Assembly: GCF_003568865.1 (NCBI RefSeq)
Contig: NZ_CP031115.1
Span: 248,001 to 312,000, forward strand
Reading direction: 5' to 3'
DNA: 64,000 nucleotides
Source: Rubrobacter indicoceani
GTDB taxonomy: Bacteria; Actinomycetota; Rubrobacteria; Rubrobacterales; Rubrobacteraceae
A model generated the notes under the pieces. The model was not told the DNA's origin. It saw only the letters and a program-made list of their open reading frames with translations, and made no database searches. The position numbers and the translations under genes were made by a program. Positions 1,163-30,150 of the stretch are shown piece by piece (within the stretch, counting starts at the first letter, position 1; every line of letters begins with the position of its first letter).

Positions 1163-1402
1163 ATGGCGAGAGCAAACGGGGGAGGTTCGGAACCTAAAGA
1201 ACGCAAGGATGGCCGTTGGCAATCGAATTACACGGTCTACATAGACGGTGTACCGAAGCTCAGGAGCGTATACGCTAGGAACAAGAGTGAGTGCCGAAAA
1301 AAGCTCATGGCCAAGCTCGCTGAGCGCGACGGGGGACTCGTCCTTCAAGCGTCGTCAGGTAGCCGGGCATGTTGTCATGGATTTGCAGCTTGCCGGATGT
1401 GA
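1163..1402 (+). pseudogene. Truncated tyrosine-integrase N-terminus (arm-binding domain)
   Basis: Residues 1-60 (to about base 1342) match the arm-type DNA-binding domain at the start of Tn916-like and phage tyrosine recombinases: ERKDGRWQSNYTV, a strand-turn-strand core, then a basic helix ending KLAERDGG. After this the frame runs about 20 meaningless codons antisense to the HNH gene. The core-binding and catalytic R-HxxR-Y domains are absent, so it cannot recombine DNA. The break coincides with the 3' end of the convergent HNH gene, which suggests that one deletion joined the two. It marks one edge of a former mobile island. Confidence 0.7.
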
Positions 1403-2234
1403 TCACCTCGTAGCGTTCGGAGACGCTCATCATCCCGCTGTCGAACGTCCAGTGACACGTCCGGCACAGAGCGAGTCCGTTGACGGGACGGTCGTCCCCT
1501 GAAAGGCTCCATGCCTTGATATGTGCTGCTTCGGCGAGGGTGTGTCCCTCGGGGGTTCGTACCCGGATGCCGCAAAGCGTGCAGCGGTTAGCGTATGCCA
1601 TGATGACCGCTCTGCGAAAGCCCTGATCCCGGACGGCGGGCAGGTACTCCTCTTCGACTGCGATGGATTCCCGCGCTTCCGGGTCTTGCGGGTGCCTGAG
1701 AAGCTCCTCGCCGTACAGAAAGGCCTTGCGGTTGATAAGGCTCTGCTGGCAGATATCCTGTCTTGCCGAAGGTGTGAAACAAGTCTCTATCAGGGTTGAG
1801 CGGAGGTACTCGCGGCTGGCGCTGTCTTGCACGAGATCATAAAGATCCTCATCGAGAACGGCCCCGCGAACACACGCCCGGAGTCGGGAGACGCTGTTCT
1901 CGGCGTGGTCCGACTCCCGTTCTCTTCCCGAGACGAGGGACAGGTGCCAGAAACCTTCGCTCTTCAAACGCACGAACGGCATGGCGAGGGTGCTCGGCTT
2001 CGTGAACGGGATGGAACGCTCCCAGTAACGCTCGTAGAACTCGATCAGCTCGTCCGTGGCTTCTATGAAATTCGTCCCGATCTGGTTGAGTTCGATGAGA
2101 TCCAGAACAGAGAGGAGCAGGATCGGTTTCTGCGGAGCTTTGTGCAGAGTTCTTTCGGGCCATTTTGCCCTGTTCCCCGACCTGTTGAGGTTCGAGAAGC
2201 ATTTTTCGTAGTGTCGTATATGCTTATCGCTCAA
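1305..2234 (-). CDS. Phosphorothioate-binding-type (SBD) HNH restriction endonuclease
   Basis: A 309-residue protein read from a TTG at 2234 that overlaps the TGA of the dndC stub; no ATG lies nearby. Residues about 1-150 resemble the sulfur-binding domain of SprMcrA/ScoMcrA-type enzymes (APQKPILLLSVLDLIE, then MPFVRLKSEGFWHL). The C-terminal part is a McrA-like HNH nuclease with C218-x2-C221, AAHI (H238), NGLALC and CxxCH..FD (N252, C257, C260, H261). Family knowledge: such enzymes cut DNA carrying phosphorothioate or, in some members, 5-methylcytosine. The last ten or so residues are antisense to the integrase relic, so the native C-terminus was replaced, but the nuclease core is complete. 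It could still be active. An unusual start and island decay leave expression uncertain. Confidence 0.75.
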   Translation of the reverse strand: MSDKHIRHYEKCFSNLNRSGNRAKWPERTLHKAPQKPILLLSVLDLIELNQIGTNFIEATDELIEFYERYWERSIPFTKPSTLAMPFVRLKSEGFWHLSLVSGRERESDHAENSVSRLRACVRGAVLDEDLYDLVQDSASREYLRSTLIETCFTPSARQDICQQSLINRKAFLYGEELLRHPQDPEARESIAVEEEYLPAVRDQGFRRAVIMAYANRCTLCGIRVRTPEGHTLAEAAHIKAWSLSGDDRPVNGLALCRTCHWTFDSGMMSVSERYEVITSGKLQIHDNMPGYLTTLEGRVPRRAQRAWP

Positions 2235-2485
2235 AAGACGGGCGTTTCCACCTTCGTGTCCGACGCGATAACGAACACCGGCTTCCAGCGGTCTTCCACC
2301 GGCGATCCTTCGAAGGCTTTCCATACGATCTGAAGCACGGTGGTCGAGTCTTTGCCACCGCTGTAGCCGATCACCCACGGCTGAGGATTGCTTTTGTACA
2401 ACTGCCGCACTTCTCTGTAAATATCCTGCATAGTGCGGGAATCGAAGACCGATATTTCCTTTGGTGGTCCGAAATCGACCGTCAT
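2231..2485 (-). pseudogene. dndC: dndC N-terminal fragment (DNA phosphorothioation)
   Basis: 84 residues that match the start of DndC, the PAPS-reductase-like ATPase of the Dnd DNA phosphorothioation system. It has PWVIGYSGGKDSTTVLQ (PP-loop SGGKDS) followed by a VFVIASDTKVETPV strand. DndC is normally about 500 residues; here the frame stops at 2231-2233 just after the first beta-alpha units. The rest of dndC, dndD and dndE are missing, and the HNH reading frame starts at once. The direction (dnd genes, then the nuclease) matches known Dnd-linked restriction loci. I infer a single deletion that fused the dndC 5' end to the nuclease gene. Confidence 0.8.
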
Positions 2486-2804
2486 GGAAGGATCTCACTC
2501 TTCCTGAATCTGTTGTGGGGTGGCGGATACAGGGGAGCGACACCCTCGGCGGGCTCCGAACCTGATCTGTGAGGGTCTGGTTTCAAACGGGGATGCCTCG
2601 CCACGGTCCATCCTCCCGCGTGCCATGGTGCGCTCGCCATTGCCCGAAGATTATAGAGGAGTGTGTCTCGAAGATCGAGGCAGATCACACCGGCTCGTAC
2701 TCGCTGTTTTCTCTACGGGATCTATTCGCCTATAACCGGGCGCTGTTATGGGTAAAGGGTCTCTGAAAGGCAGGTTCTACGGATATCTACGAACAGGAGG
2801 GCCA
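2486..2804. other. Unassigned stretch upstream of the dndC stub
   Basis: About 320 bases with no convincing gene. On the minus strand a frame (2482-2688) ends with an ATGA overlap on the dndC start, as a former upstream dnd gene would, but its residues match nothing I know. On the plus strand a 65-codon frame (2569-2766) has a plausible C-terminal part (CPKIIEECVSKIEADHTGSY). Either could be a relic of the same island. The DUF2231 ribosome binding site closes the region. Confidence 0.3.
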
Positions 2805-13637: not shown

Positions 13638-14537
13638 CTATGGGTCGGTCAGGTAGTGTTCTCGGTGGTACCTGAGGAACTCCCGGCCGATCCCGTGCTT
13701 GCGATGAACCCAAAGGTCTCCGGTAGCGCCGATCAGGGAAAGATTCTTCTCTACAGAGATAGCTCCATTGTCGAAAAGCACGTGGTGGTTCGGGCACAGG
13801 CAGATCATGTTTCCGATCACGTCTGGTCCATAGTGGGGAGATCCCAGCGGTCGTATGTGTGCGGCTTCAGCGTATGGTCCGGCCGGACATTCCAACCGCA
13901 CGGAACACATCTGGCAGGAGTACTTGTAAAGTCTTTTGAGCGATACGGCGAGTAATGTATTCCTAACGATACGAGCGGTTGTTTGCTCGCGGTGGCGTCC
14001 CGCCGGCACATTGTAGGCTCCCTGCTCTTCGGAGACGGCTCCAGGTTCTTCTCTTTGCCTGTTTGAGATCGAAGGTATCTCTACAAGCCGGAACCTCCAT
14101 ACCCTGAAACCCGAGCGTCCCGGTTCGTGCCAGTACTTCTCGACGAGATAGAGGCCATCGTAGCTGTAGCCGTATGGCGGAGAGTGGACGAAATCATGAG
14201 TAGAACCCCGTATAACCCGCACCGGAAGACCGTTCATGCAACTGAATGCGAGCGCCCGGTTCCTTCCTGCGAACGGCTGGTCGTGTGTCTGAGTACCGGT
14301 TTGCTGGTCTCTACCGCCAGATCCGGTGTAGATGATGAGATCACCGTGATCTTCATCATCCTCGTAGCCTCCCGAAAGGACGATAGAGTCCGCGCCCTCG
14401 GTGGCGCTTCCGGAGATGCCAGCTTGAAGAGGACGGTGCACGCCGGTCTCATGCAGTTCTGCGCGGTCTGCAAAGATGCTTCCGGGAGGGTGTCCAGGGA
14501 TATCTCCGAAGATGCGATCCGTCATGCCGGCCATCAT
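13638..14537 (-). CDS. SRA (YDG) - HNH modification-dependent restriction endonuclease
   Basis: 299 residues. The N-terminal SRA/YDG domain (about 8-155) begins RIFGDIPGHPPGSIF and HRPLQAGISG and holds SYDGLY (YDG 126-128); this fold flips out 5-methylcytosine or related bases. The C-terminal HNH domain has C208-x2-C211, AAHIRP (H227), GNMICLCPNHH (C248, H251) and FD (255-256). The order SRA-HNH matches type IV enzymes such as TagI and ScoA3IV. The start may be the ATG at 14537 (GAAGAG upstream) or 14525. Codon use is less GC-rich than in its neighbours, which suggests transfer. No partner methylase is in the window, as expected for type IV. Confidence 0.85.
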   Translation of the reverse strand: MMAGMTDRIFGDIPGHPPGSIFADRAELHETGVHRPLQAGISGSATEGADSIVLSGGYEDDEDHGDLIIYTGSGGRDQQTGTQTHDQPFAGRNRALAFSCMNGLPVRVIRGSTHDFVHSPPYGYSYDGLYLVEKYWHEPGRSGFRVWRFRLVEIPSISNRQREEPGAVSEEQGAYNVPAGRHREQTTARIVRNTLLAVSLKRLYKYSCQMCSVRLECPAGPYAEAAHIRPLGSPHYGPDVIGNMICLCPNHHVLFDNGAISVEKNLSLIGATGDLWVHRKHGIGREFLRYHREHYLTDP

Positions 14538-28493: not shown

Positions 28494-30150
28494 ACAGCAG
28501 GTTCGCAGAGGGGTAAGGCGCGGGGTCGAGCGGGCGACCGGAGGCGACGGAAACGGGGCGGTCGAGCAGTTCCGGGTAAACGCCCAGGATTTCCTTTCGG
28601 CGCGGGAGCTCGGTGAGTCGGTCAGCACCCGCATCGAGGCCCATACGGTCCCGCTCGACGAGGCACAGGAGGTTCTCGGGCGCAGCTTCCCCGAACGCGC
28701 CGAGGGCGGACGGTACACCAACGTCATCTCCCCGGTGGTCATGCCGAAGTCCCGGCTTGCGCTGTGGCCGTTTATCGTGGCTTTCTTTGCCCTGCTGGGC
28801 CTTGTGGCGAGCGTCTTGGTGCTGCTTGCAACCGGACCGAACCCGGCTCTCGCCCTGCTCGGGCCGCACCTGTGGCTGCTGCTTCTGGTGTACGCGGCCT
28901 TCAGCTGGTGGCGGCGGTCGCTGGTGATGGTGCCGGAAGGCTCGGCCGCGCTCATCACGCGCTTCGGGAAGCTGGAGGAGGTCGCCGGACCGGGACGCAA
29001 GACGCTATTCTCGCCCTGGAAGCGGGTGAGTTATATAGTCAATACAACAAGAGAGTATCCTTACAACGCCCCTATTCGGGAGGCCCCGACAAGCGGACGG
29101 GTCAACGCGAGCGTGGACCTGTTCCTTCAGTTCAAGATCGAGAACCCGGCGGAGTTTATCTTTGCGCTGGGCGGGGTGAAGGGTTTCTCGGACAAGCTGG
29201 AGAACGCCATCAGCGAGGTAACGCGGACGATGATCTACGAACAGAGGGCCGAGGCTATTTACGACCTTGTCGGCGAGAGCACGAACATCTTTATCGAGGC
29301 GTTAAACCAGCAGTTTCTACCGGCGGTCAGGTTTATGAGCGCGAACATCACCCACGCGGAGCCGTCAAGCCAGGAGTACCGGATGGACCTCGCCTCGCCG
29401 GAGATGGTGCGCGTCGCAAAGGAGGCCTACACCTACGAGTACGAGCTTGGACTGAAAAAGCAGCAGAACGAGGGTGAGCTGAACCGCGAGCTTGCGTCGC
29501 TGAAAGAGACGCTCTCCGCGATACAGGCCGAGATAGCGACCTACCAGGCGCAGATGGACACCGCCCGCGAGCGGGAGACAAACCGGGCCAACGCCAGCGC
29601 GCGCCAGCGGATGGTCGAGGCCGAGAGCGAGGCGAAGGCCAACTCGGCGCTCCTAGAGGCTCAGGCTCTGGACATCCGCGCCGTGAGCGGGGCGACCGCG
29701 CCGGAGATACTTGAGTACCGCTTCCAGAACGAGGTTCTCGAGAGGCTCGAAGAAGTAGCACGGAACCTGCCGCAGGTTGTGCAGCTCGGAGGGGACGGGG
29801 AGCATCCGGTCGACTTTCTGGCGATCGCGAAGCGGATGGTCGGGAGCGGGGACGACCCGCTTTATTCGGCGGAGGATATGGAGATGATCCGGAGCCGCAT
29901 GTTCGAGATACAGGGCCGCATCGAGGGCCGGGAAGAAGAACTCACCGGGCTTCGAAGGGCGGATCAGGTCGAGGAAACGGAGCCGGACGCTGCAGGCTCC
30001 GACGCTGCCGAACAGGACGAGAAGATAGAGGAGATACGGCAGTCCGTAACCGACGAGGCCGTTCAGGAGCGGGTGGAGAATATCTCCCGCACCGGAAACA
30101 CAAAAGGCTCGAACGGGACCGGAAACTCCGAGCCGGGGGGTAACTCGTGA
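28483..30150 (+). CDS. SPFH (band 7) membrane protein 1
   Basis: 555 residues from a GTG. Order: a charged N-terminal region (1-90), two membrane segments (about 95-118 and 124-146), an SPFH domain (about 150-310: VPEGSAALITRFGKLEEVAG and VDLFLQFKIENPAEFIFALG), a long coiled coil (about 325-410), and an acidic tail. The layout is like HflK/flotillin proteins that form membrane cages. The next gene overlaps by four bases and encodes a second SPFH protein with the same two-segment hairpin, so they probably form a hetero-oligomer, as HflK and HflC do. The function is inferred. Confidence 0.85.
   Translation: MDVEQQVRRGVRRGVERATGGDGNGAVEQFRVNAQDFLSARELGESVSTRIEAHTVPLDEAQEVLGRSFPERAEGGRYTNVISPVVMPKSRLALWPFIVAFFALLGLVASVLVLLATGPNPALALLGPHLWLLLLVYAAFSWWRRSLVMVPEGSAALITRFGKLEEVAGPGRKTLFSPWKRVSYIVNTTREYPYNAPIREAPTSGRVNASVDLFLQFKIENPAEFIFALGGVKGFSDKLENAISEVTRTMIYEQRAEAIYDLVGESTNIFIEALNQQFLPAVRFMSANITHAEPSSQEYRMDLASPEMVRVAKEAYTYEYELGLKKQQNEGELNRELASLKETLSAIQAEIATYQAQMDTARERETNRANASARQRMVEAESEAKANSALLEAQALDIRAVSGATAPEILEYRFQNEVLERLEEVARNLPQVVQLGGDGEHPVDFLAIAKRMVGSGDDPLYSAEDMEMIRSRMFEIQGRIEGREEELTGLRRADQVEETEPDAAGSDAAEQDEKIEEIRQSVTDEAVQERVENISRTGNTKGSNGTGNSEPGGNS

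What the first reader, a model, noticed from the sequence alone, without database searches (positions are those of the whole stretch)
1163..2485. Wreck of a DNA phosphorothioation (Dnd) island that kept its nuclease
A dndC stub (84 residues with the SGGKDS loop) is fused end-to-start to an SBD-type HNH nuclease, and an integrase stub closes the other end. The modification genes that would make phosphorothioate DNA are gone, yet the nuclease that would read this modification has a complete active site. Keeping the restriction half turns a self-marking system into a possible type IV defence against phosphorothioated foreign DNA.
Basis: partly seen in the sequence, partly recalled or inferred. 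Interest (0 to 1): 0.65.

Follow-up and report, generated by a model that had tools for sequence, protein, structure and literature searches.

The report
Clipped sulfur-DNA nuclease beside dndC fragment
At the worn right end of a mobile island in a Rubrobacter-like bacterium, a gene of a known type that cuts sulfur-tagged foreign DNA, here with its conserved tail missing, sits against a scrap of a gene that once helped to make such tags; it is a fossil of a known conflict rather than a new system.

Summary
Window 2231-2485 (minus) is an 84-codon N-terminal fragment of dndC. Window 1305-2234 (minus) encodes a sulfur-binding-domain/HNH nuclease whose TTG start overlaps the fragment's stop. Window 1163-1342 (plus) is the N-terminus of a tyrosine integrase. 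No other dndB, C, D or E was found in the 3.08-Mb genome. The catalytic H-N-H residues and the SBD fold are present. However, the nuclease is not whole: the last 26-28 residues, kept by 82 of 84 homologs, are missing at an illegitimate junction with the integrase. The interpretation needs changing. SBD-HNH enzymes are not the restriction half of Dnd (that is DndFGH/DndI). They cut phosphorothioated DNA and are known type IV enzymes incompatible with dnd. This one groups within a Rubrobacteraceae clade of solitary nucleases whose genomes have no dndC, so it was type IV before. The three pieces form the right end of a ~20-kb tRNA-Gln island absent from the sister genome. Best reading: a type IV gene and dnd debris joined by deletions, nuclease probably impaired. 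Similar dnd debris lies next to this nuclease in two Geobacter MAGs, a modest and testable lead.

The parts
1163..1342 (+). N-terminal ~60 codons of a tyrosine integrase (stub; frame runs on to 1402 through non-homologous sequence)
   Evidence: 80% identity to residues 1-60 of a full-length integrase at L145:10077-11264, which has PF00589 and a tRNA-Gln 3' fragment ~90 bp downstream
1338..1345 (.). junction between the integrase stub (plus) and the 3' end of the nuclease (minus); the two homologies overlap by about 8 bp
   Evidence: nuclease homology ends at R298 (codon 1338-1340); integrase homology ends near 1345
1305..2234 (-). SBD-HNH nuclease gene (PT-dependent type IV restriction enzyme kind), TTG start at 2234-2232, truncated at its C-terminus
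   Evidence: NF045808 8.2e-36 (123.6 bits, below the 180-bit cut-off, as for intact relatives at 132-134 bits), profile 12-258 of 284; model pLDDT 90.4; PDB matches
1737..2231 (-). sulfur-binding domain (residues 1-165); cavity positions by alignment to ScoMcrA: H116->Q34, R117->K35, Y164->M84, P165->P85, A168->R88
   Evidence: residue roles from PMC6224610
1338..1649 (-). HNH domain (residues 195-298) with C217/C220/C256/C259 and H237/N251/H260; lacks the last ~27 residues of the family
2231..2485 (-). N-terminal 84 codons of dndC with the SGGKDS PP-loop; stop overlaps the nuclease start (TTTTGAGC)
2486..2794 (.). unassigned stretch between dndC start and conserved chromosome; no dndB remnant found
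   Evidence: tblastn of DndB finds nothing; synteny with sister genome G001 begins at about 2795

Best explanation
This is the degraded right end of a ~20-kb genomic island that entered the chromosome at a tRNA-Gln gene. It holds three broken pieces: the first 60 codons of the island's tyrosine integrase, a PT-dependent type IV nuclease (SBD-HNH) missing its last ~27 residues, and the first 84 codons of a foreign dndC. The nuclease descends from a Rubrobacteraceae lineage of stand-alone type IV genes, not from the Dnd operon. Illegitimate deletions joined the pieces. An intact enzyme of this kind grips a phosphorothioate with its SBD and cuts nearby with its HNH domain, which kills cells carrying active dnd genes; the loss of dnd beside it is therefore the outcome expected from known incompatibility (inferred for this locus). 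The present copy is more likely impaired or dead than active (roughly 65:35), because a conserved C-terminal helix of the HNH domain is gone. Shown: identities, junctions, absence of dnd modification genes, truncation, island and clade. Inferred: order of events, incompatibility as cause, loss of activity.
For: DndC fragment and no dnd genes elsewhere. SBD fold: 8h0l Z 21.8; SprMcrA and ScoMcrA SBD Z ~14. Tail: of 84 homologs, 82 carry 26-34 residues after the LEGR position, one has 17 and one runs off its contig; also kept in E. coli and Azospirillum enzymes only 26-27% identical; profile search: 13 of 13 other Actinomycetota hits reach position 325-326 of 327, the window stops at 312. The tail is modelled as a confident helix (pLDDT 93-98) in the intact sister, and its HNH domain then aligns better to TagI (Z 13.4 v 9.8) and VcaM4I (11.5 v 7.7). 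Clade: ten Rubrobacteraceae members, support 1.0; 0 of the other 59 genomes searched has DndC. Island: tRNA-Gln at G000:C1:230368-230441; in sister G001 the same two flanks lie ~1 kb apart. The integrase kin sits beside a tRNA-Gln fragment. Incompatibility: dnd plus ScoMcrA kills cells, and S. lividans receiving sco4631 lost its dnd island in 10 of 10 cases (PMC3009677).
Against: The body of the nuclease shows no excess of substitutions: 18 departures from the outgroup majority in the HNH domain against 12-19 in intact clade members, so it may be recently truncated or still useful. An apparent acceleration against one sister vanished in that wider test. No attachment-site repeat was found at the right end, so the island boundary rests on synteny with one sister genome. 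Whether the tail is needed for activity is not tested. The dndC fragment could have arrived after the nuclease.
Confidence: 0.72

Rival explanations
1. One reading: the nuclease belonged to the Dnd island, was kept by selection after the modification genes were lost, and works today as a type IV defence against PT DNA.
For: It abuts a dndC fragment; Chloroflexota relatives (L024, L067, L138) sit beside dnd clusters; catalytic triad and SBD intact; body under normal constraint; short stop/start overlap could couple its translation to dndC's start.
Against: Groups with solitary Rubrobacteraceae nucleases; in dnd clusters the gene is on the strand opposite to dndC; conserved C-terminal helix missing; SBD-HNH enzymes are not Dnd restriction halves (PMC7461809, PMC3009677).
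Confidence: 0.17
2. Replacement: in a dnd-bearing ancestor, a type IV nuclease gene recombined into the dnd operon, destroying modification and installing anti-PT restriction in one event; only such disrupted recipients survive. (This is a sub-case of the best explanation that also fixes the order of events.)
For: Nuclease starts exactly where dndC homology stops. Two Geobacter MAGs have the same nuclease type next to a broken dndE: in L084 it abuts the C-terminal half of dndE followed by an intact dndA; in L135 a dndE N-terminal half runs into a dndA C-terminus one gene away; neither genome has dndC. Precedent of dnd loss under a type IV enzyme (PMC3009677).
Against: Only three cases, two in fragmented MAGs; event order unknown; defence islands collect scraps anyway.
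Confidence: 0.3
3. Chance neighbours: unrelated scraps accumulated in a decaying island, with no causal link between nuclease and dnd loss.
For: All three pieces are broken; island cargo is mixed (protease, glycosyltransferase, HTH).
Against: Same kind of debris recurs at two other SBD-HNH loci; known incompatibility.
Confidence: 0.35
4. Assembly artefact joining unrelated contigs.
For: Reads were not available; two abrupt junctions within 1 kb.
Against: Lies inside a 2.86-Mb contig of a 3-contig, 99.99% complete genome; overlap at one junction is typical of real illegitimate recombination.
Confidence: 0.04

Closest known systems
SBD-HNH PT-dependent restriction enzymes (EcoWI, SprMcrA, Bsp305I and relatives; NCBIfam NF045808)
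   Same: SBD followed by HNH, same fold, KP..LL and PF motifs, catalytic triad and zinc cysteines, solitary gene without dnd, often on mobile DNA
   Different: Lacks the C-terminal WHRxxVF segment; scores below the NF045808 cut-off, as do its intact relatives, so it is a divergent subfamily; Q and M at the H116 and Y164 positions
SBD-Hga1 (PDB 8h0l), sulfur-binding domain of Hahella ganghwensis
   Same: Closest solved SBD: Z 21.8, rmsd 1.6, 26-29% identity
   Different: Isolated domain in the PDB; has H rather than Q before the conserved K
ScoMcrA (Sco4631), type IV enzyme of Streptomyces coelicolor
   Same: SBD and HNH; known to kill cells that carry dndA-E; carried on an integrative island
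   Different: Has an extra SRA-like domain; intact; also cuts methylated DNA
Chloroflexota Dnd clusters with a co-encoded SBD-HNH gene (Chlorohelix plasmid L024, L067, L138)
   Same: Same nuclease subfamily next to dnd genes, and an integrase nearby in Chlorohelix
   Different: dnd genes intact, two DndB paralogs, nuclease on the opposite strand and intact

Membership tests
SBD-HNH PT-dependent type IV restriction enzyme (PTDR) | N-terminal sulfur-binding domain fold | tested here: met
   8h0l Z 21.8 over 145 residues; SprMcrA and ScoMcrA SBD Z 13.7-14.3; phmmer 1.6e-9
SBD-HNH PT-dependent type IV restriction enzyme (PTDR) | sulfur cavity: H116, R/K117, Y164, P165 of ScoMcrA | tested here: inconclusive
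   K35 and P85 kept; Q34 and M84 replace H and Y. Q34 is shared with the intact sister L060; Y164M strengthens binding in ScoMcrA (PMC6224610)
SBD-HNH PT-dependent type IV restriction enzyme (PTDR) | HNH catalytic triad and zinc ligands | tested here: met
   H237, N251, H260 invariant; C217, C220, C256, C259 kept
SBD-HNH PT-dependent type IV restriction enzyme (PTDR) | complete HNH domain including C-terminal WHRxxVF helix | tested here: not met
   about 27 residues missing; hence filed as a truncated gene of this kind, not as a working member
SBD-HNH PT-dependent type IV restriction enzyme (PTDR) | NF045808 curated cut-off (180 bits) | tested here: not met
   123.6 bits; intact relatives also score only 132-134, so the subfamily lies outside the model
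SBD-HNH PT-dependent type IV restriction enzyme (PTDR) | cleaves PT-DNA | not testable with these tools
   needs biochemistry
Dnd phosphorothioation system | dndC, dndD and dndE (with dndA/iscS, dndB) intact | tested here: not met
   only an 84-codon dndC fragment; no DndD or DndB in the genome; DndE search silent but its control was silent too
Dnd restriction half (DndFGH / DndI) | DUF262/DUF1524 (DndI) or DndFGH architecture | tested here: not met
   Pfam, PADLOC and structure give SBD + HNH_2 only
tRNA-integrating genomic island | empty site in a relative and integrase of matching target | tested here: met
tRNA-integrating genomic island | flanking direct repeats (attL/attR) | tested here: not met
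   no second copy of the tRNA-Gln 3' end in the island or at its right end; consistent with deletion of the right end

The most novel reading that the evidence does not exclude
SBD-HNH type IV genes repeatedly land in and replace dnd modification operons, so that a single recombination event both disarms the host's own PT marking and installs a weapon against it. Genomes would then carry a readable fossil record of the dnd/type IV conflict, with the window and two Geobacter loci as natural examples.
Probability: 0.22. Interest if true: 0.55.

Novelty: new member of a known kind. Interest (0 to 1): 0.33.

Why it matters
It is known from the laboratory that cells cannot keep both phosphorothioate modification and an SBD-HNH nuclease, and that dnd is what gives way. 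This locus, with the two Geobacter loci, suggests that the result of that conflict can be read in natural genomes, which would help to explain why dnd systems are so patchily distributed. It also warns that an open HNH frame with a complete catalytic triad is not proof of a working enzyme: here a conserved helix beyond the Pfam domain is missing.

Tried and rejected
Relaxed selection on the window's HNH domain: significant against the sister L060 with one outgroup (22 v 2), but not with a majority of ~75 outgroups; L060's HNH domain resembles other clade members, so the first result is probably confounded, and I do not use it. Attachment repeats: none. A dndB remnant upstream of dndC: none. 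Other dnd pieces in the 20-kb island: none. Q34 as a sign of decay: rejected, because the intact sister L060 has it too. Integrase stub against plasmids and PHROGs: no match; found only by searching relatives. The tRNA called at 29828 is not credible and unrelated. No paper on SBD-Hga was held in the library.

Full report
What is there. The window lies at G000:C1:248001-312000 of a 3.08-Mb, 3-contig genome whose relatives are Rubrobacteraceae. Reading the minus strand from 2485: ATG and 84 codons of dndC with SGGKDS, a TGA at 2233-2231, and an overlapping TTG (TTTTGAGC) that opens a 309-residue frame. The 84 residues match DndC at profile positions 3-62 of 447 and no further. The long frame is SBD then HNH: its model (mean pLDDT 90.4) matches the PT-DNA-bound SBD of Hga (Z 21.8, rmsd 1.6), SprMcrA and ScoMcrA (Z ~14), and its C-terminal half the HNH domains of TagI and VcaM4I. 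Aligned to ScoMcrA, the sulfur-cavity positions H116/R117/Y164/P165 are Q34/K35/M84/P85; K is the usual residue at 117 and Y164M strengthened binding in ScoMcrA (PMC6224610). Q34 is also found in the intact sister L060.

The nuclease is cut short. In relatives the protein continues after ...NLPGYLTNLEGR with about 27 residues ending WPDxxSLxWHRENVFR. In the window the frame goes LEGR-VPRRAQRAWP-stop, and those ten residues are the antisense of the integrase piece. Of 84 homologs, 82 keep a tail of 26-34 residues, one has 17 and one runs off its contig. The tail persists in E. coli and Azospirillum proteins with 26-27% identity, and 13 of 13 other Actinomycetota hits reach the end of the profile. 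In the intact sister it is a confident helix (pLDDT 93-98), and the structural match to TagI and VcaM4I extends through it (Z 13.4 and 11.5, against 9.8 and 7.7 for the window). So the active-site residues are complete but the domain is not. Against decay, the rest of the protein departs from the family no more than intact members do.

The island. The plus-strand frame at 1163 is 80% identical over 60 residues to the start of a full-length tyrosine integrase in another Rubrobacteraceae genome, which is followed about 90 bp downstream by the 3' part of a tRNA-Gln gene. In the window's genome a tRNA-Gln gene lies at G000:C1:230368-230441. In the sister genome G001 the genes to the left of this tRNA and to the right of window 2795 lie about 1 kb apart. 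About 20 kb is therefore inserted here, and the given finding is its right-hand end. The right attachment site, the rest of the integrase, the nuclease's tail and the rest of dndC are all missing, as expected from deletions; the integrase and nuclease homologies overlap by about 8 bp at 1338-1345.

Where the nuclease comes from. In a tree of 80-odd homologs it groups with L060 inside a ten-member Rubrobacteraceae clade (support 1.0). Apart from the window's own fragment, none of the 60 genomes searched has a DndC match. Among the 80 best loci from a collection of 84,980 species, only two Chloroflexota loci (L067, L138) have intact dnd genes near the nuclease, as does a Chlorohelix plasmid; there the nuclease faces dndB2 and is on the strand opposite to dndC where dndC is visible. 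Two Geobacter MAG loci have dnd debris: L084, where the nuclease abuts the C-terminal half of dndE followed by dndA; and L135, where a dndE N-terminal half runs into a dndA C-terminus. Neither of these genomes has DndC.

How it works, and why the pieces are together. From the literature, SBD-HNH enzymes bind the Rp phosphorothioate and cut nearby, restricting dnd+ plasmids (PMC7461809, PMC6224610). ScoMcrA with dndA-E kills the cell, and S. lividans receiving sco4631 lost its dnd island in 10 of 10 exconjugants (PMC3009677). Fewer than 3.6% of such genes lie near dnd genes, and broken dnd clusters were offered as one reason (PMC7461809). The window fits this: a type IV gene and a dead dnd gene side by side. 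That the nuclease caused the loss is inference. That it works today is doubtful.

Verdict. It is a truncated member of a known kind in a worn genomic island. The recurrence of dnd debris beside this nuclease is the one lead worth a survey.

Noticed in passing
L024:7989-15116; L067:3134-11596; L138:654-2744: Three Chloroflexota carry an intact SBD-HNH nuclease tail-to-tail with a second DndB paralog (L024 and L067 in a complete dndB-C-D-E-dndB2 cluster; L138 is cut off by its contig end after dndB2, but the genome has a DndC). Conserved co-occurrence of a PT-cutting nuclease with PT-making genes is unexpected and suggests a different target sequence or DndB-based control.
   Followed up: partly
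L084:5853-8245; L135:6613-9175: Geobacter MAGs in which the same nuclease type lies next to a broken dndE and dndA, with no DndC in either genome.
   Followed up: partly
window 13638-14537 (minus): A second HNH protein (299 aa) with a C-terminal RYHREHYL segment like the tail missing from the first; its HNH region resembles that of TagI-type modification-dependent enzymes by eye. Not classified here.
   Followed up: no
G000:C1:230441-250795, left of the window: The remaining ~18 kb of the tRNA-Gln island holds an RTX/beta-helix protein, a subtilase, a WbsX-type glycosyltransferase, an HTH regulator and several families without Pfam match.
   Followed up: partly
window 29828-29924: ARAGORN reports a tRNA without a readable anticodon; the sequence looks like coding DNA and the call is probably false.
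   Followed up: partly
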